A DNA stretch of 43,188 nucleotides from a virus. The stretch lies in IMG/VR virus record IMGVR_UViG_3300030107_003117, positions 1-43,188 of that record, one strand, 5' to 3'. The position numbers and the translations under genes were made by a program. Below the pieces are notes generated by a model. The model saw only the letters and a list, made by a program, of their open reading frames with translations. It was not told the origin of the DNA and did not search any database. This document shows, piece by piece, positions 116-41,683 of this stretch (the stretch's first letter is position 1; the number at the start of each line of letters is the position of its first letter).

Positions 116-211
116 AATTTTATTTATTTTATTGTTATTATTATTATTATTATTTATATTATTATCCACTTTAATATGTATTTACATTGTATTATAGTAT
201 ATTATTAAATA

Positions 212-219
212 CAAATTTA
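212..219 (-). promoter_or_regulatory. Candidate Bacteroidetes -7 box (TAAATTTG) for the leftward gene
   Basis: On the minus strand the sequence TAAATTTG matches the Bacteroidetes primary-sigma -7 consensus TAnnTTTG exactly, about 100 bases upstream of the leftward ATG. I see no clear TTG -33 element at the expected distance upstream, so the promoter is only partly supported. Exact 8-base matches with two free positions also arise by chance in AT-rich DNA. Confidence 0.35.
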
Positions 220-257
220 GGTTTATTAGAATAATAATTGTAAGAGATATTATTAAA

Positions 258-353
258 GGTAAGTTTAATAAAGTTTTTGTATAGTTTAGGGTTATTTATT
301 TTAGTATATTTAATATTGTTTAAATAAATATAATTTTTGTTGGTAAGTTTAAT
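258..353 (+). repeat. Two direct copies of GGTAAGTTTAAT
   Basis: The 12-base sequence GGTAAGTTTAAT occurs at 258-269 and again at 342-353, 84 bases apart (eight helical turns). Both copies sit in the A/T-rich half of the divergent region, close to T-runs ending in TTTTTGT. They could be a repeated operator or a phage promoter element; two copies alone prove nothing. Confidence 0.45.
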
Positions 354-414
354 TGTGTTCATAGTTTTTTTATTATATTATCCATTGGGTAATGTATTTA
401 GTTTGTATGTAAGT

Positions 415-473
415 GGGATGAGGATGGGAATGAGATAGGATGAGGATGAGATGGATGGGATGGGATGAGGATG
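415..473 (+). repeat. Iteron-like GGATGAGGATG repeats
   Basis: The core GGATGAGGATG is found three times, at 416-426, 438-448 and 463-473, with start-to-start spacing of 22 and 25 bases. Further GGATGGG units fill the gaps. Regularly spaced direct repeats of this size beside an A/T-rich stretch resemble initiator-binding iterons, but they could equally be a simple-sequence expansion or a terminase recognition region. Confidence 0.6.
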
Positions 474-594
474 AAAGAAATAGTTAGTAGACATGGAAGG
501 ATAGAATAGATTATGGATGGGGATAGGGGGGAGGGGTAAATGGATAAAAATGGGGATGATGAGGTAGGGCCAGGTTGAGGGAATGGATTTCCCA

Positions 595-622
595 GGGGGG
601 AGGGGGTGGGGAGGGGAGGGGG
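595..622 (+). promoter_or_regulatory. G-quadruplex-forming G-run cluster
   Basis: Five consecutive G-runs of 6, 5, 4, 4 and 5 bases (595-600, 602-606, 608-611, 613-616, 618-622) are separated by single A or T bases. Any four fulfil the classical quadruplex rule with one-base loops, the most stable parallel topology. The cluster is followed by CCCC at 633-636, able to pair with the last G-run across a 10-base loop, and by seven T at 652-658. It lies just upstream of the first late gene, on the non-template strand for rightward transcription. This composition is exceptional in such AT-rich DNA. Confidence 0.85.
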
Positions 623-771
623 CAACACTACACCCCAAAATTTGTAATAACTTTTTTTAGTGACATAAGCCTATTAATAAGAATAGAGTAACTACCTAAT
701 GTCACACTTCGCTTAAATAATAAAATAAACATGTAACTATTAACTTATTAGTTAACTATAAAAATAAAGAA

Positions 772-1122
772 ATGGCATTTAAAATGAACTACAAAAAAGG
801 TAAGGGCTTCCCTTTTAAGACATCACCTACAAAAGCCTATAAAGATATGGACAAATACTCTGATGAGGATGATGCTGTAAAGTTTGGAAGTACGGAAGGT
901 GCGTCTACTTCAGGATCTTTACCAAAGAACCCGTTGAAACAAGAAATGGGAATCTTAGATAAATTATTAACTTTTGACAAAGCGCTATCTAGTTGGGATG
1001 GACCTTTTGGGGATGTTAAATTAATGGATGAGTACGAAAGATTGAAAGGGCACAAGCGTAGAAAAATGAGACAAGAAAAAAGAAAAAGAGAAAGAGCTGA
1101 AGATATGGCTAATAACAAATAA
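772..1122 (+). CDS. Small charged phage protein with xFKMN N-terminus and PLKQ motif
   Basis: First gene of the rightward unit; 116 aa with an A-rich leader ending AAATAAAGAA before ATG. It begins MAFKMNYKKGKGFPFKTSPTK, has NPLKQ near residue 54 and ends in a very basic Arg/Lys segment (about residues 92-110, KGHKRRKMRQEKRKRER). The family is not recognised. The N-terminus resembles that of the next two genes and of small proteins further right, which suggests a shared short signal rather than a shared fold. The basic tail could bind nucleic acid or an acidic partner. Likely a minor virion or assembly protein by position; function unknown. Confidence 0.8.
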   Translation: MAFKMNYKKGKGFPFKTSPTKAYKDMDKYSDEDDAVKFGSTEGASTSGSLPKNPLKQEMGILDKLLTFDKALSSWDGPFGDVKLMDEYERLKGHKRRKMRQEKRKRERAEDMANNK

Positions 1123-2685: not shown

Positions 2686-4251
2686 ATGGAATACAATCTA
2701 CCTAGCGAGATTGTCAAAGATCTTAACTTTGGCGATAGCGCTAAAAAAAGAATTATAAAAGGCGTAGATAAACTAGCTCAAGCAGTTAAGTCTACCCTAG
2801 GAGCATCAGGTAAATGTGTAATTTACGAAGACGCTCGAGGGAAACCGGTAATCACAAAAGACGGAGTAACCGTAGCAGAATCGGTTGTCTTGTTTGATCC
2901 GGTTGAAAATATGGGAGCTACGCTTATTAAAGAAGCGGCTAGAAACACAGTGAGAGAAGCTGGTGATGGTACAACCACAGCAACTGTTCTCGCTGAAGCC
3001 CTTATTAAAGAAGTAAATAACTGTAAAAAAGATATAACTATTAGAGAAATTAAGGAAGGTATAAGTTCTGGCCTTGATAAAGTAAATGATTATCTCAATA
3101 GTGTAAAAATAGATGTAGAAGGAGATATGCTGCGTAACGTTTCTTCTATTAGCTGTAACAACGATGCTATGTTAGGAGGTATTATATCCGAAGCATATGA
3201 AAAAGTTGGTAAAGACGGCGTAGTTTTAATGGAAAGTTCTGATACTGAGAATACTTATGTAGATATTGTAGACGGTGTACAAGTAGAATGTGGTATAACA
3301 TCACCACATTTTATTACTGATACAGAAAAACAAAGATCAGTTTTAGAAAATCCATTAATTTTAATAGTAGCATCGGAAATACCTAACATTAGAAAGATAC
3401 AAAACATCCTAGAGTTTGTAATAAAGCAAAACCGATCTTTACTTATAGTTGCTCAAGTTAGTCAACAGGTAAAATCGGCGCTTTTAATGAACAAAGTTAA
3501 AGGAAACATCAAAGTAAATATAATAGACTTACCAGGTTTTGGTCCTACTAAACAAGATACTATAAAAGATTTAGCGATTTTAACCGGAGCAGAAGTAATA
3601 AATGAAGAATTAGGTGATGATTTAGATGGAATATCGCTAGATATACTAGGGGAAGTTGAAAAAGTAGTTACTGATAGTAAAAATACGGTAATAACATTAG
3701 AAGGTATAGCACCAAAAGTCTCAGAACGTATAGAAGAGGTTAGAAAACTACATAAAAAAGAGAAAAACGGTTATATAAAAAAGAAAATAGAACAAAGATT
3801 AGCTATGCTTTCCGGTTCTGTAGGAATTGTAAGAGTTGGTGCGGATTCAAAAGTAGAGTTAAAAGAAAAGAAAGATAGAGTTGAGGACGCGATATACGCT
3901 ACAAAAGCGGCTTTGAAAGAAGGTATCGTCCCAGGTGGTGGTATAGCACTACTCAATGCTGCTCAAAGCATAAAACAAGAAAATGTTGGAGAAGAAATAC
4001 TATTAGAATCTATAAAAGCACCTTTTGAAACTATATTAGACAACGCTGGTTTTACACAGGTAGGTCCTAGACCTTCAAAAGGAATAGGTATAGACGTTGT
4101 TACAGGAAAAGAAGTCAACATGATCGAAAAGGGAATTATAGATCCAGTTCTTGTAACTAAAACAGCTTTAAAAAACGCAGTGTCCGTTGTTAATACTATT
4201 ATATCTGCTGATTGTGTAATTTCAAATATTAGAATAGATGAAGGCAGTTAA
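2686..4251 (+). CDS. groEL: Phage-encoded chaperonin GroEL
   Basis: 521 aa, a full group I chaperonin (about 540-550 aa in bacteria). The ATP-site residues are present: ITKDGVTVA (D59), GDGTTTATVLAEAL (D94, T96-T98), RVEDAIYATKAA (D401), VPGGGIALLNA and GIIDPVLVTKTAL (D486). The equatorial, intermediate and apical segments are all there in order. The C-terminus ends in RIDEGS, without the Gly-Gly-Met tail of most bacterial GroELs. The protein should form ring complexes that fold client proteins in the infected cell, most plausibly capsid or tail proteins, and should hydrolyse ATP. groES overlaps its 3' end by 14 bases, so the pair is translationally linked. The divergent sequence suggests long residence in phage rather than recent capture. 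Confidence 0.97.
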   Translation: MEYNLPSEIVKDLNFGDSAKKRIIKGVDKLAQAVKSTLGASGKCVIYEDARGKPVITKDGVTVAESVVLFDPVENMGATLIKEAARNTVREAGDGTTTATVLAEALIKEVNNCKKDITIREIKEGISSGLDKVNDYLNSVKIDVEGDMLRNVSSISCNNDAMLGGIISEAYEKVGKDGVVLMESSDTENTYVDIVDGVQVECGITSPHFITDTEKQRSVLENPLILIVASEIPNIRKIQNILEFVIKQNRSLLIVAQVSQQVKSALLMNKVKGNIKVNIIDLPGFGPTKQDTIKDLAILTGAEVINEELGDDLDGISLDILGEVEKVVTDSKNTVITLEGIAPKVSERIEEVRKLHKKEKNGYIKKKIEQRLAMLSGSVGIVRVGADSKVELKEKKDRVEDAIYATKAALKEGIVPGGGIALLNAAQSIKQENVGEEILLESIKAPFETILDNAGFTQVGPRPSKGIGIDVVTGKEVNMIEKGIIDPVLVTKTALKNAVSVVNTIISADCVISNIRIDEGS

Positions 4252-4495
4252 TCACTATATTATAATAGACATGATAAAAAACGAACCTGTTAAAGTAGGT
4301 GGACTGATTCTTACAGAAAAAACAGATGAGGACAATAGGTATTTAAAAGCTAAGGTAGTATCAATAGGTAATCTTGTTGAGGGGATAAAAGAAGGTGATA
4401 CTATACATTATGATAAACATGCTGGACACGGAATCCAGCATAAAGATAAATTTTACGGCGTTATAAAGCAACAAGATGTCGTACTTATAGATTAG
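4238..4495 (+). CDS. groES: Phage-encoded co-chaperonin GroES
   Basis: 85 aa, somewhat shorter than the roughly 95-aa bacterial GroES. It shows the GroES beta-barrel pattern: MKAVNHYIIIDMI first strand, the mobile-loop hydrophobic triad in GGLIL (21-25), then KAKVVSIGNL, the turn EGDTIHYDKHAGHG and the last strands GVIKQQDVVLID. It caps GroEL to close the folding chamber. The start lies within the last codons of groEL in another frame, the usual groE pairing although the bacterial order is mostly groES first. Reversed order and overlap are features of this phage operon. The short form probably lacks or reduces the roof hairpin. Confidence 0.93.
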   Translation: MKAVNHYIIIDMIKNEPVKVGGLILTEKTDEDNRYLKAKVVSIGNLVEGIKEGDTIHYDKHAGHGIQHKDKFYGVIKQQDVVLID

Positions 4496-30193: not shown

Positions 30194-33100
30194 ATGAGTA
30201 AAAAATCACCTTTAAAACAAATGTGGAGCGAAACTTTAAAACCACCTAGTATAAAACCTTATCAAGATTTAACCCTTGGTCCTGAAGGTTGGGAGGTTGT
30301 AGATAAAGAATGGTACTTCAGTAAAGAAAACCTTGGGGAACCACCTAAAGCGTCTCAACTATCTGAAGAGCAAGTAGAATCTATAATTAAAAAAATGCTA
30401 GCCCAAGGACATAATCAAGGTACTATTGTTAATGTTATTAATAGTATAAGAAAAGATAAAAACAATGCTTATAATTCTAGAGTAAAGCTTTACAACGAAA
30501 AGTTAGAGAAGTTTAAATCTTCTGAAAAAAAGATAATAGAAAATAAAGTTAATTCATATAGAAAATTAGGTTGGGATGAAGGTAAATTAACTCAACTTTC
30601 AAGTTTATTAACAGAGCAAAAAGAAAAAGGTATTGATTACGAGGGTGATTTTGATATAGAATATGAAAATGAAGATGGTAGAAAAGTATATGAATCTGAA
30701 CTTGATAATAGATTTTTCAAAGGATTTGAGGGTACAATATTTGGATACGACAAAAAAGATGGTAAAATAGTTACATCTACAGAAGCTCAAGATTACATAA
30801 AAGAAAGACTTGAAGAAGTAGAGTACAATAAAGTTACAAATAAGAATTTAAAATGGGAAGAAGAAGCTGTACAAAAAATAATAGAAAATAAAACTAAGAA
30901 CTTAGATTGGGACGGTGGGGAATTTAAAGTTGAGCAATTTGGAATAGGTGACAATGTAAGATTATTATTTACGGACAAAGATGGTGTTAAATATACAGAA
31001 GAAATAAACGTTGACTTTGGAAATGATTTTAATTCTGATGAGGCTACAAGTGCTGTTGATAAAATTAACAAGTTTATAACAAGACATAAGAAATCTAGAT
31101 TTACAACTAAAGACGAGCTAGAATTAGCAAAAGATAACCCTTACTACATTAACAACGAAATGTATTCTCATAATGAAGTTGTTGAGATGTGGAAAGAAAA
31201 TAGAGGTTATACACACGAAGACTTGTATGAAAAAGATGAGCTGGGCAATATTATATTCGATGAAAATGGTATGTCTATACCCAAGAAAAATATAGTTTCT
31301 GATTTTGAAAAATATGTGAAAAGTGTAGCAGATACAGATAGATTAGGTAGAGTAGGTAATTTATCTAATCCATTCTCAAGACAAGATTATGATACTAAAG
31401 CAATACATACAATTAGTGGAGGTTCTGAATTAGCTACTTTAGAACAATTTTGGAATAAAGGAGAAGATGAGGTTGTTACTATTCTAGACAATATGGGTGT
31501 AACAACATATGTGCCAACCGCTGGTTTTGATGATTTAGTTCATTATTCAATAGGAAACATTCAAGGTGAAATAGATTTAGGTACAGATCAAGGAAAACAA
31601 GAGTTAAGAAAAATAGAAGATTACTTATTAAATAGATCTGATGAAGAAGCTGAAAACGATATAATCACAGATACTTTATCAGACCTTGTTAGTAGTACGC
31701 AAAAAAGAGATGATACAGGCAAATGGAAAAAATACAATATGCTTGAGTCTAATAGTGATATTCCATCTTTTATGCTTAAAGAAAATGGAGGTTTTCTTAA
31801 TAATGATGATAATTTATACTATAAGTTAAAAACCACAACAAGAGGGTTTGATCCAATTTATAATGAGATAGGTGAAATAGTGGTTGATCCTAAAAATGCT
31901 CCTAAAAGTTTTACTGAAGAAATAGGTCTTGATGGTATAAATATTAAATACCAAGACAACGAAGAATCTATTGTTCAATTTTATGCTAATATAAATGGTG
32001 AAGATGTTCCGTTAGATATGTCTTTCGCTCAGGGTGTGTTTAGAAAAGAAAATTGGGTTGGAGACGATGCTACTTTTAAAGGAGAAAATATTAATGATTA
32101 TATCGAAAGCTTTCTTGAGACAGGTAAAAAATCTTTTATAGGTGGTGGAGATTCTGATTGGTGGAGAACAGCGCTTGAATATGGAGCTTCTACTTATTTT
32201 TTAGGATCAACACACGCTATATCTTACATCCTTCCATTATCAAACCCCGCTGGAATAACAGCACCAGTTAACGCGTCTCCAAAAAAGATGTTTATAAGAT
32301 CTTTAGTTAGTTCATTACCAGAAAAATCAAGACAGAATGCTCGTAACGTTATAACAGAAAAAGCTTTTCAATATAGAGAAGATATAAAAAACGAGGCTAT
32401 AGATAATATTAAAAATGAATCTGAACTAATTGGTACTGATGATTTCATATTGCAACAAGCTCTTACTAATGGTGGTGAAGCTGTGGATTACTTTTCCAAT
32501 GTGATGGGTAATAATTTTAGCAATTTAGATGATGAAGGTGCTTATAAACATTCTACTAAAACAGGTTTGAATATTGACTTAGTAATATCAAATAGAAACA
32601 GACTGAAGCAATTAGGTTTATCAGAAGAAGGTTTAGAAATGTATGATGAGTATTTTGCTGATGAGTGGGAGCGACCAGGGTTTTTTGATAGAGATAACAA
32701 ATTTTTAGATTTTAAATCATATAGAAAAGAAGGTTGGGAAGAACAAAGACTTAACAAGGTTTTAAATATAGAAGATTTTGTAGAAACTTTAGAGGGCAAT
32801 GATCAGGATTTAGTTGGAGATTTTTTCTATGCTAGAGTAGCAGACAAAGAAGAAGGTATGTCAGACGAAATGTTAGCTAACATAGATCATTGGAATAATT
32901 CGTTAATGAATGTTGATCAAACTTTAATAGCTGTTGAAGAGAACAGATTAATGGAGGGTGATAAAAGAGTTGGTAATTTAAATGGAGGCTCTATAAGTTA
33001 CGGTTCTTTATCAAATATGTATACTTTAGATAAACAGCAAACAAACATCATACAGAGAAATAAAGAAGCTGATTTTGTATACAAACTAAACAATCAAGAT

Positions 33101-36100
33101 TTTACAGCAAGATTCAAACAAATAGGTGAAGATTTACTTGAAGAAGGTTATTATGTTAAAAGAGAAAATAATAATTATTTAGTTGTAGATAAAGATGGTA
33201 ATTTTGAAAATGGCAAGTACCAAGAAAAATTAAACAATCTTAAAACACATGTAGAATTAAATACTAATAATTACGTTAAGCTTAGAGAAGAGACTTTAGA
33301 AGAACTAGGTTCTTTACATAAATTAAAAGGAGGACAAAAAGATCTTCAGCATGTTTCAGATATGGATAATTTTGGATTTTGGGGAACTTTTATTCCTACA
33401 GCAGCAGATAGTTTTGAAAATATGGCTCTTGCTATTCCTATGTTGTTTGGTAGTGATGCTGCTATAAATGCTTATAGTTCAAACCAAAGAGGTTTAGATT
33501 TAATCTTACCTACTAGAATGGATTATTCTGATGCTGTTAAAAATGAATTATTTGGTGAGTTTTATGGTAGAACACTAGGAGAACAAGCAGCTAATATGAC
33601 ACTGGCTGTTGGTAGCGCAGGTATTGGATCTTTAGCTGGTACATCAGCAGCTACTTTAACTACCATACAGAGTATAATGTTTGGTACTCTTGCTGCTGGT
33701 ACAAAAATGGGGGAACTAGAAATAGCTCAAGAAAGAGGTAATTGGGCTTTAGGTGAATTAAGAAAATTAGAAGACTTTAAAGATTTATTACCACCAGAAG
33801 ATTATAAAAAACAAAAAAGATATTTAAATGAAATTGTTCAAGAAAATCATACCACTTACTTACAAAGATTAGGTTCGTCTTTAACTACAGGTTTAATAGA
33901 AGGTGCTGTAATGAAGTTTTTAGGTACAGCTGTAAACGCAAATAGATTTTTTAGAATAGGCGCTCCTGGCTCAGCTATAGATGATGTTGTTAATGCAGCT
34001 GTAAACGGTACTAATAATGCGAGTAGATCTGCCCTTGCAAGATTTAGTCATGGTTTTGTAAACTTTGGTAAAGAAGCGTTAAAAGGAACAGCTGGGGAGG
34101 TTGCAGAAGAAACTTTAATTGAATTTGGTTCTATGCTTGGTGACATGATGTGGTTAGATAAAGACTTTGATGTTTCGCAGTTAGATGACGTGGCTGTTGC
34201 TTCTATATTAACTGGTGGAACAATGAACACTGTTGGTGGAGGACTTTCGTCATTAATGAATGCTGGAAAAACAAACGAATGGGTACAACATGTTAAACCT
34301 TATGTTGAAAAACTATATGATCTTCGAGAAAGGTTAGATAACCTACCTGTAGATGCTACGGCTAGTAGAGACGAAATACATACTCAAATAGCTATGATTG
34401 AAAATAATCTAGATCAACATGGTAAAGGCTTAGCTAATACAATTAGATTGTTAGGCGCTGAAGATATTAAAAAATTAATAGCTTATCAGCAAGTTGGAAA
34501 CTCTTTATTAGCTATGGCAGGTATTAATGCTAGTATGAATGAAGATCAAATAAATAGAACTATAGAAAAATATAAAAAGAAAATAGGTCCTAAAAAAGCT
34601 AAAGAGTTTCAAGCTAATTTAGACGCTGTTTCTCTTGGTAAGAAAAGATTAATTGGTAGTGTTAAGTATGATAAAAATTCTATAGAAAAACTATTTGGAC
34701 AAAGAGGTTTAGAAATTGCTGAAGATTTAAAAGATAATAATGATTTTAACAAAGCTGATTTTAGAGGTAAGGCAGCTATGGTGTCGCAAGTTGTTGAACA
34801 GCAAATGACTGAAAACACTGCTAACAGGATGAGACAAAGTAAATATTTTAGTGATCAAGTAGAAAGAAAAGTTTACGAAGGAAAAACATGGGAACAGTAT
34901 AAAAAAGAAACTGGAAGAAAAAATAGAAAAAGAGCTCAAGAAAACGAACTATATAATATGTATGCTCCTCATGTTCTTATGCAGGCTACTAACTCTAAAA
35001 TGGTATATGATAAAAATATAACAAATGCTTCCGCTATTTTAGGTGAAATAAATATTGAAGATTTAAAAAACAATATAATAACACAAGATCCTAACTTAAG
35101 TAAAAAAGGAAGAAAAAATCAATTGAGAAAGCAGTTGATGGATATGAGAAATGAAGATGGTGATAGACTAGTTACTGATGAAGATATAGGTATGTATCTA
35201 TCTATGTTTGAAAGAGGTGAGTTGCCAGGTCTTTTGATTGGTAATAAATATATAGTTCAAGATAGAGATGCTGCTATGGAGAGATTAAATAGAGGTGATC
35301 TAGTACAAGGAACAGTTATATCACATGAGTTGTCTCACGTTCTGGATAATTTAGCTTTTCAAGGTAAAGATATTAAAGAAACAAGAAAAAACATAAGTAA
35401 TTATTCTGAACACTTATATGATTATATGTCAAGGAATATGCCTGGTTTTCATGATAATGCTATACGTAACTTAAAATTGAATTACGGTCAAGATTTTTTT
35501 GGAAAAAGAGGTTGGAAAGAAAATGTCGACTTTAAAAAACAAAGTGACATGATCAAAGATGAGTACACTAAAAAAATTCAAGATGCTATAGAAGGAAATA
35601 TAGAGTCAATAAATGAATATGGTATTCATAGTATGAGCAATGAGCTTAAAAAACAAATGAACGTAAGAGTAAGCCTTAAAAATCTATATGGTAAATACAA
35701 AGTAAATAGTGGTAAAGACGCTTGGTATTATATGGCTAACTATATAAAAGCCAAAAGAGAAGGTAAGTTATCTAAAGTACAAAAGAAAATGGTTGCTGGT
35801 AAAAAACTACAACCTACGCAAGAAACAGTGGCGTCTAGAATTAAAGTAGAAATCGAACAAGTTATAGGTAAAGATAATAGAAAAAAGCTAGTAGAAAAAG
35901 TAAATGAAACTTATTCTAAAATAATAGATTTACAAAAAGAATTAAATGACCCTAATTTAAATGATATTCAAAAAAGTTCTATAAACCAAAAAATTAATGA
36001 TTTAAAAAGTGAGATAGCAGAACAATATAGACCTATGGCTGAAAAAAGATTTAGTGAAAATCTTGCAACAGCCCCTTCGGTACAACAAAGAGAAAATTTA

Positions 36101-39100
36101 GAAAGAAACTCTTATGATATAGTTACTGAAATCCTTTATGATCCTGGACAACCTAGTAAAAGAGAAGAAGGTAAGATAAATAAGTCTAGATCAGTTTTAG
36201 GTATGATTAACGACTTCCAAATAGAAAGACACAGTTATGGTAACTTAGCTGCTTATATTAATGCTCATTTCAAATGGAGATCGTTAGAAGTTTTTGCAAG
36301 ATATGATACAGTGTTTGAACAACGAGCTGACGATGCTATGGGACAGTTGGAGCAGCTTACAGAAGAAATGGATACAGGTGGAGATACTGGACCAATACAA
36401 TCTGGAGATATACTATTAACTGAGAGATTTTCAGAATTAGAAACAAATCCAATCGTATTAAACAAGATTAATGAAATTAATGAAAACATAGTAAACGAGA
36501 TTACTAATGATCCTGCTTTATACGAAGGTAAAAACTATAAAACACTTAGTGACTTAAATCCATTGCTAACAGTGCAAATGATGATAGGTGATCCTAATTT
36601 AACTTATATAGATGATGGTAGTGCTTTTTGGAAAAGTAAAAAAGGAAAAGCTTTATTAGGTACTTCTGTAGCTGAATCTATAGTTAAAAAACTAACTAAC
36701 AACGATAACTTAAATCAACAAGATGTAAAAGCCTTGCAACGATTTATATTTAAACACAATGATGTTTTGTGGAAAATGTTACCTGAAGGTTTTATGACTA
36801 AAATGGTTAAACAAAAAGACGGTACTGAAGTATCTAGACCTGACAAAGCTACTGGTGTTCAAAATGTTTTATTAGAACCTTTTTATAATAGATCTTCTAA
36901 AAGAGTTGGTAATGGTTATCCACAGTATAAAAAACCTTTAACATCTGTTTCAGCACAAGATTTTTTAGATGTTTTTGGTATTACACCTAGAGGTGAAATG
37001 AATATAATAGGAAAAGAAAGTAATGTTAGTCAAAGAATAAAAGCTTTAATTCAACAAACTGGTAAAACAATTACAAACCAAACTACAAGAAGATATTTAT
37101 TAGACAAAGGTAGTATGGTGGATAAAGCTAGATTAGATTTAGAAAACGGTAAATCTCAAGTTATGTTTAGTAGAGAAATAGCTACTAATTTAGATATTCC
37201 TAATATTAAAGAAAAATATACTAATTTCATTACTTTAGTAAACGATCAATTACCTTGGGACACTTTCACACCTTCTAAAAAGTTTAATAAAGATAAAGAT
37301 CTAAAACAAACTTTAAAAAACTTAATGAAAGAAGCTGATATACCTCTAACTTTACAAAGTAAGTTGTTAAATGAAATGACTAATAATACAGGACAGTTGG
37401 TTAATATGTCTAATATGAAGCGTGTTCGAGATGAATCTGGTATGCAAAAAGAAGAGTACGATAATATAATAATTACAGATATTGTAAACCAGACAAATAA
37501 CGAGTTTTTAAAAAATAGATCACTACAAGAGATTTTAAATACTCCATTTTCTGCATCTGTAACAATGTCTAATCCTGACAATATTGATATAAGTAGAGAA
37601 GATGTTACTAGACAAGTTCAAACTGAGATAAAAAATCAAGGTATAGAGTTAACTGAAGAGGGATGGAATAACGCTATGAAAGATCTTAAGCTATTCGTTG
37701 ATTCTGATGGAAAAAAAGGAAACAACAATATAGTAAACGTTGTGCAATACATATATGATTTAACAGATCAATATGCTAGTATGGGTAGAATACATAACGG
37801 ACTAATAAGTATAACAAAAGAAGGTGGTAACACATTTAATATACAACCTGATAATATTAATCCAGAAGTATCTACAACACCAAGAAAACAAATATTTGAA
37901 GGTATTGGAGACTTTATGTTTTTTGTTAATAGATCTATCATGGGTAACGATGGTAATTTCATAGAGATAATACCTATGAAAAAATCAAACGAAGTTAGAT
38001 CTAGACATAACATAACAAGAGAAAAAACAACTACTAAGTATGGTTGGGGTAGCAAAGAGTTCCAAGCTATGTATCCTGGTTTTACTTCTAAACGTTTAGA
38101 TGAAAGTTCTGAAGCTGTTATGAAAGAAGCTGATATAATAGATGGCATACCTACCTTAGGTAGTTTTTACGAAAAACGACAAGAGCAAGCTTTGTATTTT
38201 AGAGAGCACTTAAAGAAACAAACTAAACATATTTTTGATAGAGCTTTAGATAAAGATGATAGTTTTGGAAAAGCTAATGTTTTTGTATGGTTAATGGGCT
38301 TAGGAAGCGGAATGAAAACAGCTAGTAGAAGAGCAGCACCTGTAGCTGGTATAGCTGATGGTGTGTTTGACGCAAAAAATCCTGGTAAAGATTTAGAATA
38401 TGATCATTTAAAACCTAACCACGTATTAATGCAGAAGCTTGCTAAATTATATATTGATTTATCTAATGGAGAAATAACTATGAATGAGGTTAATACAGAA
38501 TTAGATACTTTCTTTATAGATTACGTTGTTAATATTATCCCTAAAAAAATGGATAATGTAGCTAAAAGATCTGGTGTTCAATCTTTTATGCAGTTAGGAT
38601 ATATAGAAGGAGGAATATTACGAATGGAAGATGGCGCTTACGGTAGACTATATAGTGATAGAACTAAATGGCATGAAGAAATGAGAGCTATAACTTTACT
38701 TGATCCAGCTCTTGAAGGAAAACGTTTTGGAGAAGACTATGTAAAACCTAGTTATGCGAACAAATCAATAGAGCAACACTCTAGAGATATAATAATAGGA
38801 GATGCTGTATTAGCGTCTAGATCAATTAGAGATACTGTAGGTATAAGCGTTTGGGATTTTGATGATACTTTAGCTAAGAGTAAATCTAATATATTATACA
38901 CAACACCAGATGGAAGAACTGGAAAGTTAACAGCTGAAGAATTTGCTAAGGATGGCGCTAGATTATTAGAAGAAGGTTATGTATATGATTTTTCTGAGTT
39001 TAGTCAAGTAATAGATGGTGAGGCTGGACCTTTGTTAGAAAAGTTTAAAAATAGAATTGAAAAATATGGTGTTGAAAATAACTTTATACTAACAGCTAGA

Positions 39101-41683
39101 CCAGTAGATTCTAATATAGCTATACATGAATTTTTAAAGTCGCAAGGAATTAATCTTCCTATAAAAAATATAACTGGACTTGCTAACTCTACAGCTGAAG
39201 CAAAAGCAGAATGGATATTGAAAAAAGTAGAAGAAGGATATAACGATTTTTACTTTGCCGATGATGCTACAGCTAATGTTGAAGCTGTAAAAAATGTTTT
39301 AGAACAAGTTGATGTTAAGTCTAAAGTACAACAAGCTAAAGCACAGTTTAGTAGAGAAATAGAATTTAACATGAATAGCATGTTGGATTTAAACAGAATA
39401 CTAGAGCAAACTAAAGGTGTTGATGTTAATACTCGTTTTTCAGAAGCACAAGCTAAAATAAGAGGTTCTAAAAAAGGGAGGTTCGCGTTTTGGGTTCCTC
39501 CATCTGCTGAGGATTTTAAAGGATTAATTTATAGATTTATTGGTAAAGGTAAAGAAGGAGATGCTCAATTAGCTTTCTTTAAAAAAGCTTTATTTGATCC
39601 TTATGCTAGAGGTTACGAAGGTATTAATGCTACTAGACAAAATCTTAATGATGAGTATAGAATGATTCTAAAAGCTTATCCAAATATTAAAAAGTTGTTA
39701 AAAAGAAAAGTTGAAGGAACTAACTTCACAGTTGCTAATGCTATAAGAGTACATCTTTGGGATAAAAATAATATAGAAATACCTGGGATATCTAAAAGAG
39801 ATTTAAAAACATTAACAGAGTTTGTAAGAACTGATGTTGACTTAACTTCTTTCGCTGATTCATTAGGTATAATATCTAGACAAGAAGAAGGTTACTTAGC
39901 TCCTAATGAATATTGGACTATTGAAAATATACAAAGCGATATTAATAGACTTGTTGGAGAGGTTGGAAGAGAGAAACATTTAGCAGAGTGGAAAGCTAAT
40001 GTAGAAGAAATATTTGGTACGTGGGATAATGGAAGATTGGTTGGACCAAACATGAATAAAATAGAAGCTATATATGGCTCAAGGTTTAGAGAGGCTTTAG
40101 AAGACATCCTTTGGAGAATGGAGTTTGGATCTAATAGAAACCGAGGTAATAATAGGTTGGTAAACGCATTTAATAACTGGGCTAATCAATCAGTTGGTGC
40201 TATCATGTTTTTTAATATGAGATCAGCGTTGTTACAAACTATATCAGCTGTAAACTTTATAAACTGGTCAGATAATAATATGTTAAAAGCGTCTGTAGCG
40301 TTTGCAAATCAACCTCAATTTTGGAGAGACTTCGCTTACATATTTAATTCAGACATGTTAAAGCAAAGAAGAGCTGGTAACCAAAGAGGTATTAACGAAG
40401 CTGAATTAGCAGAGGCTGTTGCTGGTAGTAGTAACAAAGCTAAAGCAGCTATAAGTTGGTTATTAACAAAAGGTTTTTTACCAACTCAAATTGCGGATAG
40501 TTTCGCTATTGCTTCTGGTGGTGCTACTTTTTATAGAAATAGAATAAAAACTTATTTAAAACAAGGTTTTGATCAAAAAACAGCAGAGGAAAAAGCTTGG
40601 AAGGATTTTCAAGAAATAGCAGAAGAAACACAACAGTCTTCAAGACCTGATTTAATATCACAACAACAGGCTTCTCCTCTTGGTAGATATTTACTTGCAT
40701 TTAAGAATACTCCTATGCAGTACGCTAGGTTAATTAAGAAAGCTTGGTTAGATATTGTTAACAATAGAGGGGACTTAAAAACCAATATTAGCAAGATAAT
40801 ATATTATATGGCTATGCAAAACTTTATATTTACAGCTTTACAACAAGCTTTGTTTGCTATGACTGGTGATGAAGAAGAAGAAAAGGAAACTGCTAGATAT
40901 GAAAAGCTAGCAAATGGTATGATAGACTCTATATTAGGTGGTCTTGGTTTAGCGGGTAATGCTGTTATGACTATAAAAAATATGTTATTGGAATATGTTA
41001 AACAAGAGAAAAAAGGTTGGAATGCGGATCATACTTACACTATGTTAAAGATGGCTGGTTTCTCTCCTACCATAGGGTCTAAAATGAGAAAAATATATAA
41101 GGCTATAGAAGAAAGAAAGTACAATCAAGATATAATGGGTGAAATGAGTACTTTTGATATAGATAATCCAATATGGCCTATTATAGGTAATGTAGTATCT
41201 GGAGCTACAAACGTTCCTTTAGATCGTTTATTTAGAAAAATAGATAATGTAGAGGTAGCTATAACTGAAGATATAGAAGCTTGGCAAAGACTTGCTTTAC
41301 TTATGGGTTGGACCAAATGGGAACTTGGTATTGAAGAGCAAGATATCTTAGAAATAGAAGAAGTAGTTAAAACAAAGAAAAAAATAGAGAGGAAAAAGAA
41401 ACAAGAAATAAAAAAAGAGGAAAAGAAAAAAGAATTAAAAAAAGAAAATCAAAGAAAAGAACAAGAGAATAGAGATAAAAACGATGGTGGTTGTATTGCT
41501 ATAAGTAGAAGTGGCAATAGATGTAAAAATGAAGCTGAATCAGGAGGGTACTGTACAATACATGCTAAGGTTGATAAAAGGACAGATGGAAGAAAAACAC
41601 AATGTACTAAGATTAAGTCTAATGGTGAACGGTGTAAAATGAAAACATCTGCTTCTAGTGGTCTATGTTACTACCATGATTAA
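30194..41683 (+). CDS. Giant multidomain virion protein (zincin, HAD-like, tandem zinc knuckles)
   Basis: 3829 aa, about 27% of the window. It begins MSKKSPLKQ. Long helical, charged regions dominate residues 20-640. Hydrophobic Gly/Ala-rich segments occur near 670-695, 1130-1165 and 1335-1352. A zincin motif ISHELSHVLDNL lies at H1711-E1712-x-x-H1715. A HAD-like domain begins VWDFDDTLAKS (D2888, D2890), followed by ILTARP (2965-2970) and YFADDATANVEAVK (D3023, D3024). A helical module (about 3340-3640) contains FNMRSALLQTISAVNFINWSD. The end has two cysteine-histidine units starting at C3767 and C3804. By position it matches T7 gp16 as an ejected core protein, here with protease-like and phosphatase-like parts. 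No DxDGD of a virion RNA polymerase was seen. One intact frame; start supported by the shared N-terminus. Confidence 0.88.
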   Translation: MSKKSPLKQMWSETLKPPSIKPYQDLTLGPEGWEVVDKEWYFSKENLGEPPKASQLSEEQVESIIKKMLAQGHNQGTIVNVINSIRKDKNNAYNSRVKLYNEKLEKFKSSEKKIIENKVNSYRKLGWDEGKLTQLSSLLTEQKEKGIDYEGDFDIEYENEDGRKVYESELDNRFFKGFEGTIFGYDKKDGKIVTSTEAQDYIKERLEEVEYNKVTNKNLKWEEEAVQKIIENKTKNLDWDGGEFKVEQFGIGDNVRLLFTDKDGVKYTEEINVDFGNDFNSDEATSAVDKINKFITRHKKSRFTTKDELELAKDNPYYINNEMYSHNEVVEMWKENRGYTHEDLYEKDELGNIIFDENGMSIPKKNIVSDFEKYVKSVADTDRLGRVGNLSNPFSRQDYDTKAIHTISGGSELATLEQFWNKGEDEVVTILDNMGVTTYVPTAGFDDLVHYSIGNIQGEIDLGTDQGKQELRKIEDYLLNRSDEEAENDIITDTLSDLVSSTQKRDDTGKWKKYNMLESNSDIPSFMLKENGGFLNNDDNLYYKLKTTTRGFDPIYNEIGEIVVDPKNAPKSFTEEIGLDGINIKYQDNEESIVQFYANINGEDVPLDMSFAQGVFRKENWVGDDATFKGENINDYIESFLETGKKSFIGGGDSDWWRTALEYGASTYFLGSTHAISYILPLSNPAGITAPVNASPKKMFIRSLVSSLPEKSRQNARNVITEKAFQYREDIKNEAIDNIKNESELIGTDDFILQQALTNGGEAVDYFSNVMGNNFSNLDDEGAYKHSTKTGLNIDLVISNRNRLKQLGLSEEGLEMYDEYFADEWERPGFFDRDNKFLDFKSYRKEGWEEQRLNKVLNIEDFVETLEGNDQDLVGDFFYARVADKEEGMSDEMLANIDHWNNSLMNVDQTLIAVEENRLMEGDKRVGNLNGGSISYGSLSNMYTLDKQQTNIIQRNKEADFVYKLNNQDFTARFKQIGEDLLEEGYYVKRENNNYLVVDKDGNFENGKYQEKLNNLKTHVELNTNNYVKLREETLEELGSLHKLKGGQKDLQHVSDMDNFGFWGTFIPTAADSFENMALAIPMLFGSDAAINAYSSNQRGLDLILPTRMDYSDAVKNELFGEFYGRTLGEQAANMTLAVGSAGIGSLAGTSAATLTTIQSIMFGTLAAGTKMGELEIAQERGNWALGELRKLEDFKDLLPPEDYKKQKRYLNEIVQENHTTYLQRLGSSLTTGLIEGAVMKFLGTAVNANRFFRIGAPGSAIDDVVNAAVNGTNNASRSALARFSHGFVNFGKEALKGTAGEVAEETLIEFGSMLGDMMWLDKDFDVSQLDDVAVASILTGGTMNTVGGGLSSLMNAGKTNEWVQHVKPYVEKLYDLRERLDNLPVDATASRDEIHTQIAMIENNLDQHGKGLANTIRLLGAEDIKKLIAYQQVGNSLLAMAGINASMNEDQINRTIEKYKKKIGPKKAKEFQANLDAVSLGKKRLIGSVKYDKNSIEKLFGQRGLEIAEDLKDNNDFNKADFRGKAAMVSQVVEQQMTENTANRMRQSKYFSDQVERKVYEGKTWEQYKKETGRKNRKRAQENELYNMYAPHVLMQATNSKMVYDKNITNASAILGEINIEDLKNNIITQDPNLSKKGRKNQLRKQLMDMRNEDGDRLVTDEDIGMYLSMFERGELPGLLIGNKYIVQDRDAAMERLNRGDLVQGTVISHELSHVLDNLAFQGKDIKETRKNISNYSEHLYDYMSRNMPGFHDNAIRNLKLNYGQDFFGKRGWKENVDFKKQSDMIKDEYTKKIQDAIEGNIESINEYGIHSMSNELKKQMNVRVSLKNLYGKYKVNSGKDAWYYMANYIKAKREGKLSKVQKKMVAGKKLQPTQETVASRIKVEIEQVIGKDNRKKLVEKVNETYSKIIDLQKELNDPNLNDIQKSSINQKINDLKSEIAEQYRPMAEKRFSENLATAPSVQQRENLERNSYDIVTEILYDPGQPSKREEGKINKSRSVLGMINDFQIERHSYGNLAAYINAHFKWRSLEVFARYDTVFEQRADDAMGQLEQLTEEMDTGGDTGPIQSGDILLTERFSELETNPIVLNKINEINENIVNEITNDPALYEGKNYKTLSDLNPLLTVQMMIGDPNLTYIDDGSAFWKSKKGKALLGTSVAESIVKKLTNNDNLNQQDVKALQRFIFKHNDVLWKMLPEGFMTKMVKQKDGTEVSRPDKATGVQNVLLEPFYNRSSKRVGNGYPQYKKPLTSVSAQDFLDVFGITPRGEMNIIGKESNVSQRIKALIQQTGKTITNQTTRRYLLDKGSMVDKARLDLENGKSQVMFSREIATNLDIPNIKEKYTNFITLVNDQLPWDTFTPSKKFNKDKDLKQTLKNLMKEADIPLTLQSKLLNEMTNNTGQLVNMSNMKRVRDESGMQKEEYDNIIITDIVNQTNNEFLKNRSLQEILNTPFSASVTMSNPDNIDISREDVTRQVQTEIKNQGIELTEEGWNNAMKDLKLFVDSDGKKGNNNIVNVVQYIYDLTDQYASMGRIHNGLISITKEGGNTFNIQPDNINPEVSTTPRKQIFEGIGDFMFFVNRSIMGNDGNFIEIIPMKKSNEVRSRHNITREKTTTKYGWGSKEFQAMYPGFTSKRLDESSEAVMKEADIIDGIPTLGSFYEKRQEQALYFREHLKKQTKHIFDRALDKDDSFGKANVFVWLMGLGSGMKTASRRAAPVAGIADGVFDAKNPGKDLEYDHLKPNHVLMQKLAKLYIDLSNGEITMNEVNTELDTFFIDYVVNIIPKKMDNVAKRSGVQSFMQLGYIEGGILRMEDGAYGRLYSDRTKWHEEMRAITLLDPALEGKRFGEDYVKPSYANKSIEQHSRDIIIGDAVLASRSIRDTVGISVWDFDDTLAKSKSNILYTTPDGRTGKLTAEEFAKDGARLLEEGYVYDFSEFSQVIDGEAGPLLEKFKNRIEKYGVENNFILTARPVDSNIAIHEFLKSQGINLPIKNITGLANSTAEAKAEWILKKVEEGYNDFYFADDATANVEAVKNVLEQVDVKSKVQQAKAQFSREIEFNMNSMLDLNRILEQTKGVDVNTRFSEAQAKIRGSKKGRFAFWVPPSAEDFKGLIYRFIGKGKEGDAQLAFFKKALFDPYARGYEGINATRQNLNDEYRMILKAYPNIKKLLKRKVEGTNFTVANAIRVHLWDKNNIEIPGISKRDLKTLTEFVRTDVDLTSFADSLGIISRQEEGYLAPNEYWTIENIQSDINRLVGEVGREKHLAEWKANVEEIFGTWDNGRLVGPNMNKIEAIYGSRFREALEDILWRMEFGSNRNRGNNRLVNAFNNWANQSVGAIMFFNMRSALLQTISAVNFINWSDNNMLKASVAFANQPQFWRDFAYIFNSDMLKQRRAGNQRGINEAELAEAVAGSSNKAKAAISWLLTKGFLPTQIADSFAIASGGATFYRNRIKTYLKQGFDQKTAEEKAWKDFQEIAEETQQSSRPDLISQQQASPLGRYLLAFKNTPMQYARLIKKAWLDIVNNRGDLKTNISKIIYYMAMQNFIFTALQQALFAMTGDEEEEKETARYEKLANGMIDSILGGLGLAGNAVMTIKNMLLEYVKQEKKGWNADHTYTMLKMAGFSPTIGSKMRKIYKAIEERKYNQDIMGEMSTFDIDNPIWPIIGNVVSGATNVPLDRLFRKIDNVEVAITEDIEAWQRLALLMGWTKWELGIEEQDILEIEEVVKTKKKIERKKKQEIKKEEKKKELKKENQRKEQENRDKNDGGCIAISRSGNRCKNEAESGGYCTIHAKVDKRTDGRKTQCTKIKSNGERCKMKTSASSGLCYYHD

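What the first reader, a model, noticed from the sequence alone, without database searches (positions are those of the whole stretch)
595..622. Five-run, single-base-loop G-quadruplex in an AT-rich phage intergenic region
G-runs of 6, 5, 4, 4 and 5 separated by single A/T bases meet the strictest quadruplex rule and would be extremely stable as DNA or RNA. The location, on the non-template strand just before the first late gene and between divergent genes, parallels the human mitochondrial CSB II region, where a G-run cluster stops transcription and primes replication through an RNA-DNA hybrid. A transcription-linked replication start or an early/late switch is therefore possible (inference).
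Basis: partly seen in the sequence, partly recalled or inferred. Interest (0 to 1): 0.85.

Follow-up and report, generated by a model that had tools for sequence, protein, structure and literature searches.

The report
G-run insert in phage late-promoter element
The guanine cluster is real and very likely able to fold into a quadruplex, but related marine phages show that it is only one version of a fast-changing insert inside a conserved 127-base control element, probably the switch-on site for the phage's late genes, rather than a conserved mitochondria-like replication start.

Summary
The G-cluster at 595-622 (runs 6,5,4,4,5; one-base loops) is confirmed and is the only such motif in the window. 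It lies in a larger conserved element, window 523-649, found in at least 78 distinct copies among uncultivated marine relatives of Flavobacteriia phages, one per genome where whole contigs were scanned, between leftward and rightward gene arms. Its parts keep fixed spacing without indels: A-tracts, a GC block, a TTTT box, a purine-rich insert, GGGGCAACACTnTACCCC, and WATATTTRTAAY, which resembles the Bacteroidetes -7 box. Conservation ends about 100 bases before the first rightward gene. I read it as the late promoter with its upstream regulatory region (inferred; no start site mapped). The quadruplex is not conserved: 21 of 68 copies have one on the G strand, none on the other, with at least 7 gains or losses on the GroEL tree. 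It still exceeds shuffled expectation (9), and 11 contigs start within 80 bases of it (1.2 expected), as if G-runs hinder polymerases or assembly. The mitochondrial CSB II analogy is weak: the cluster sits before, not after, the likely start site, and no upstream rightward promoter or strand-specific mutation gradient was found.

The parts
595..622 (+). G-run cluster (6,5,4,4,5), potential G-quadruplex; fills the variable insert of the element
411..622 (+). noncoding G-rich, C-poor tract between the leftward promoter and the late element
523..649 (+). conserved 127-bp fixed-spacing element (putative late promoter with upstream region)
   Evidence: 68 ungapped copies, nhmmer model, window copy printed
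563..573 (+). GC block of the element (positions -70 to -60)
588..591 (+). T box (TTTT in most relatives, TTTC here; positions -45 to -42)
   Evidence: T in 67 of 68 copies at -44
618..636 (+). GGGGGCAACACTACACCCC block
637..648 (+). AAAATTTGTAAT, the window's version of WATATTTRTAAY, like the Bacteroidetes -7 box TAnnTTTG; putative promoter core, start site expected about 650-660
   Evidence: TAnnTTTG as Bacteroidetes promoter: PMC10309648
660..705 (+). hairpin GTGACAT...ATGTCAC at the expected 5' end of the late transcript
   Evidence: 39 of 78 relatives; two compensated outer pairs
374..407 (-). leftward promoter-like motif TACAAACTAAATACATTACCCAATGGATAATATA
   Evidence: consensus from 407 sites; window copies
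158..191 (-). second, weaker copy of the leftward promoter-like motif
192..362 (-). leftward 56-aa ORF, first of the leftward arm
772..1122 (+). first ORF of the rightward (structural) arm, 116 aa

Best explanation
The G-cluster is the lineage-specific filling of a fixed-length, purine-rich insert inside a conserved 127-bp promoter-type DNA element that starts transcription of the ~50-kb late arm. Likely working: RNA polymerase, helped by a phage factor (the relatives' leftward arm encodes a sigma-70-like protein and an HTH protein), binds WATATTTRTAAY as -7 box and GGGGCAACACTnTACCCC in place of a normal -33 box; upstream A-tracts, GC block and T box serve as a wrapped or activator-bound region. 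The G-run insert is upstream DNA; any quadruplex would form on the non-template strand and modulate, not define, the promoter. Shown: conservation, fixed spacing, position, orientation, lability of the G-cluster. Inferred: promoter function, start site, the factors, any effect of the quadruplex.
For: Seventy-eight distinct copies, one per genome in whole contigs scanned, at the divergence of the two arms. In 68 copies the parts align without a gap over 127 bases, and conservation stops at +16, about 100 bases before the first gene. The end block matches TAnnTTTG-type promoters. No base-pairing covariation above column shuffles, so DNA rather than structured RNA; no Rfam family. A different, repeated promoter-like motif marks the leftward arm (7-14 per genome). 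Sigma70_r2 at 5.8e-6 and r4 at 1.8e-4 in the leftward arm of a relative, with relatives in 116 viral stretches; where both were seen the element faces away from it (24 loci). G4 motif in 21 of 68 inserts against 9 expected from dinucleotide shuffles, never on the other strand; labile on the GroEL tree.
Against: No transcript data. No -33 TTG box. The window's -7 box is AAnnTTTG, not TAnnTTTG. Helical phasing of A-tracts is suggestive only (9 to 59 of 500 permutations as high in the upstream half, several profiles tried). The copies used were picked by their right-hand block, so its conservation is partly built in (the left half was not used for picking). The sigma-like gene is not in the window itself; it is seen in relatives.
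Confidence: 0.6

Rival explanations
1. The element is the phage's replication origin: an initiator binds the fixed-spacing boxes, the AT-rich WATATTTRTAAY end melts, and the purine-rich insert helps keep one strand open.
For: One copy per genome at the divergence of both arms; GC skew changes sign there in three long contigs; forks leaving it would run with transcription on both arms.
Against: Skew follows gene strand and would do so without an origin; no iterons or initiator boxes recognised; block layout and end next to a gene start suit a promoter better.
Confidence: 0.18
2. CSB II-like: a rightward transcript crosses the G-rich tract, halts at the quadruplex and primes replication through an R-loop.
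For: G-rich, C-poor non-template strand; strong predicted G4.
Against: Many relatives lack the G-cluster; no rightward promoter found left of the cluster; no C-loss gradient at fourfold sites; cluster lies upstream of the likely start.
Confidence: 0.06
3. The element is a packaging or terminus site, and contigs begin there because genomes end there.
For: Eleven contigs start within 80 bases left of the CCCC block, 1.2 expected; a 61.6-kb contig starts in the G-cluster and ends in the leftward arm.
Against: Break points scatter over 9-73 bases; near-identical elements are crossed by other contigs (L122 for L024, L040 for L046); most visible breaks lie in or beside G-runs, as sequencing or assembly drop-out would give.
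Confidence: 0.08
4. Within the best explanation, the quadruplex itself has no function: G-rich inserts drift under a weak demand for purines and now and then reach G4 form (this can be true together with the promoter or origin reading).
For: Rapid gain and loss; fixed length but free sequence of the insert.
Against: More G4 motifs than dinucleotide shuffles allow (21 against 9, at most 16), though copies are not independent; always the same strand.
Confidence: 0.5

Closest known systems
Bacteroidetes housekeeping promoters (TAnnTTTG -7 box; PMC10309648)
   Same: WATATTTRTAAY contains TAnnTTTR at a fixed place before the first gene
   Different: no -33 TTG box; a GGGGCAACACTnTACCCC block and a >100-bp fixed upstream region instead
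Human mitochondrial CSB II (PMC8780183)
   Same: G-runs broken by single bases on the non-template strand, near a gene and replication control region
   Different: CSB II is transcribed and stops transcription; here the cluster is upstream of the likely start, is not conserved, and has no shown transcript across it
Activator- or phage-sigma-dependent late promoters of tailed phages (such as T4 late promoters; from general knowledge)
   Same: AT-rich core without a normal upstream box, next to the late arm, and a phage sigma-like gene in the other arm of relatives
   Different: one copy per genome, long fixed upstream region with a variable insert
Cellulophaga, Maribacter and Flavobacterium phages with related terminase and portal (Pachyviridae phi13:2, Panino, Elemovirus; Manatee Spring genome)
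   Same: related terminase, portal and structural genes
   Different: element and G4 motifs absent in the stretches scanned of four of them; no homologue of the sigma-like gene in the phage collection

Membership tests
Potential G-quadruplex | four or more G-runs of at least 3 with loops of 1-7 | tested here: met
   five runs of 4-6, loops of 1
Potential G-quadruplex | folds in K+ and stops polymerases | not testable with these tools
   only indirect: contig starts pile up at the element
CSB II-like element | G-cluster is transcribed, on the non-template strand, downstream of a promoter | tested here: inconclusive
   no rightward promoter-like motif found left of it (searched only for the clade's own motifs); likely start lies to its right; no transcript data
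CSB II-like element | conserved G-cluster at the same place in relatives | tested here: not met
   (21 of 68)
CSB II-like element | RNA-DNA hybrid primes replication | not testable with these tools
   needs infected cells
Bacteroidetes-type promoter | -7 box TAnnTTTG | tested here: inconclusive
   WATATTTRTAAY in relatives; AAAATTTG in the window
Bacteroidetes-type promoter | -33 TTG box about 19-20 bases upstream | tested here: not met
   purines at that place
Structured RNA leader | compensatory base changes in stems | tested here: not met
   best 4-bp stem Z 2.9, shuffled maximum 2.8 on average; no Rfam match
Crassvirales-related tailed phages | muzzle, terminase and portal homologues | tested here: met
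   crAss_MUZ_C 3.1e-8, phrog_6681 and phrog_6547; formal taxonomy not tested

The most novel reading that the evidence does not exclude
The purine insert is a rapidly evolving specificity module of a late promoter, and in some lineages a DNA quadruplex on the non-template strand between divergent early and late promoters acts as the switch element (keeping the late promoter open or insulating it), a role that arose several times independently.
Probability: 0.15. Interest if true: 0.75.

Novelty: new variant of a known kind. Interest (0 to 1): 0.45.

Why it matters
It replaces one odd G-cluster with a testable control element shared by a large, uncultivated group of marine phages: where late transcription probably starts, which phage factor may drive it, and which part changes fast. 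It also gives a practical warning that contigs of these phages tend to break at this point, so genomes look linear or incomplete there. If the quadruplex matters, it would be a rare natural case of repeated gain of a DNA quadruplex at a phage promoter.

Tried and rejected
Deamination or R-loop mutational gradient: C on the + strand falls towards the element from the left, but fourfold sites show none, so it reflects gene content and intergenic share. Structured RNA: no consensus fold on the alignment, no covariation, no Rfam family. Physical genome end: scattered break points. G-cluster as clade-wide feature: absent in many relatives. Element in isolates: not found in the stretches scanned of four genomes, which do not cover those genomes whole. 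Giant 3829-aa protein as RNA polymerase: no match in Pfam, PHROGs or solved structures that says so. A literature search found no description of this element or of late promoters in this clade (open-licence papers only). A scan of bacterial genomes for the phage GroEL gave only stray MAG contigs, so no host assignment.

Full report
What was checked. The sequence at 595-622 is as described: five G-runs of 6, 5, 4, 4 and 5 with single-base loops. It is the only motif of its strength in the window, and shuffles do not reproduce it. It ends a noncoding, G-rich, C-poor tract (411-622). Left of it is a leftward 56-aa ORF (192-362) with a promoter-like motif at 374-407; right of it the rightward arm begins at 772. 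The C-poor stretch 192-362 is coding, so it should not be counted as part of a noncoding feature.

What the window is. It is an IMG/VR virus record of 43,188 bases. Terminase, portal and structural proteins match Cellulophaga, Maribacter and Flavobacterium phages and a Manatee Spring genome, and a muzzle protein domain links it to Crassvirales-type virions. It carries its own GroEL and GroES. GroEL led to 80 related viral contigs with 72-84% identical GroEL.

The larger element. In nearly all relatives that reach far enough upstream, the same noncoding element lies between the leftward and rightward arms. A pattern scan added 51 stretches, giving 78 distinct copies. Sixty-eight copies align without any gap over 127 bases. 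From left to right, counted from the CCCC block: A-tracts near -107, -98, -86 and -77; a GC block at -70 to -60; an AT-rich stretch; TTTT at -45 to -42; a purine-rich insert; GGGGCAACACTnTACYCC; and WATATTTRTAAY at +4 to +15. Conservation fades after +16. The left half was not used to pick the copies, so its alignment is independent support; the right block was used, which inflates its conservation. A-tract phasing near 10.5-11 bases is suggestive, not firm.

The G-cluster is a variable filling. The insert is G-rich in many relatives, a dyad such as CTGGGTACCAG or ATTGATAATCAAT in others, or AT-rich. A G4 motif occurs in 21 of 68 copies on the + strand and in none on the - strand; dinucleotide shuffles of the same inserts give 9 on average and 16 at most. 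On the GroEL tree 11 carriers need 11 changes, at least 7 forced by well-supported branches, with no clustering. So the motif comes and goes quickly but more often than composition alone predicts. The copies are related, so the shuffle test overstates independence.

Contig breaks. Of contigs anchored at GroEL, 11 start within 80 bases left of the CCCC block, against 1.2 expected if starts were even (binomial 1.4e-8). Most visible starts lie in or right beside G-runs, at different bases, and near-identical elements are crossed elsewhere. One 61,584-base contig starts inside its G-cluster and ends in the leftward arm. Drop-out in sequencing or assembly at G-runs explains this best; it is indirect evidence that these runs hinder polymerases, not proof.

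Function. One copy per genome in the whole contigs scanned, facing the ~50-kb rightward arm, with a promoter-like right end, a stop of conservation about 100 bases before the first gene, and in half the relatives a hairpin right after it: this is the layout of a promoter with a long upstream region. The leftward arm carries another, repeated motif, TACAAACTAAATACGA-N9-GATAATATA. That arm in relatives encodes a sigma-70-like protein, an HTH protein and a primase-helicase, the first of which has relatives in 116 viral stretches and points away from the element where both are seen. 'Early' and 'late' are inferred from gene content.

Why not CSB II. The published CSB II acts through its transcript (PMC8780183). 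Here the cluster lies upstream of the likely start site, no rightward promoter of the clade's known motifs lies to its left, the cluster is not conserved, and fourfold sites carry no trace of long single-strand exposure. The idea is not excluded experimentally, only unsupported.

Limits. No transcript, replication or read data were available. Isolates with this element are unknown here; four isolate or reference genomes were scanned only in part, and the phage collection holds no homologue of the sigma-like protein. Searches for prior description covered open-licence papers only.

Noticed in passing
window 660-705: Hairpin GTGACAT...ATGTCAC in the late leader of 39 of 78 relatives; outer stem has two compensated pairs, inner stem is not supported; a copy also lies at G004 (reverse strand) 12542.
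   Followed up: partly
window 374-407 and 158-191, minus strand; 407 sites in relatives: Repeated leftward promoter-like motif TACAAACTAAATACGA-N9-GATAATATA, 7-14 copies per genome in the leftward arm.
   Followed up: partly
G003 66824-67582 (L144/L153), G004 63535-64290: Sigma-70-like protein (regions 2 and 4) with relatives in at least 116 viral stretches, no homologue in the phage collection.
   Followed up: partly
window 30194-41683: ORF of 3829 aa, no clear match in Pfam, PHROGs or solved structures except a short DUF5763 match near its C-terminus.
   Followed up: partly
L042, L043, L070, L107, L110, L130 at about -36 to -22 of the element: Insert carries a perfect dyad (CTGGGTACCAG or ATTGATAATCAAT), like a dimer binding site, where other lineages carry G-runs.
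   Followed up: no
window 411-560; L002, L016: Long GGATG/GGGAT-like purine tract left of the element, seen only in some relatives.
   Followed up: no
window 2686-4495: Phage-encoded GroEL and GroES pair close to the start of the rightward arm.
   Followed up: no
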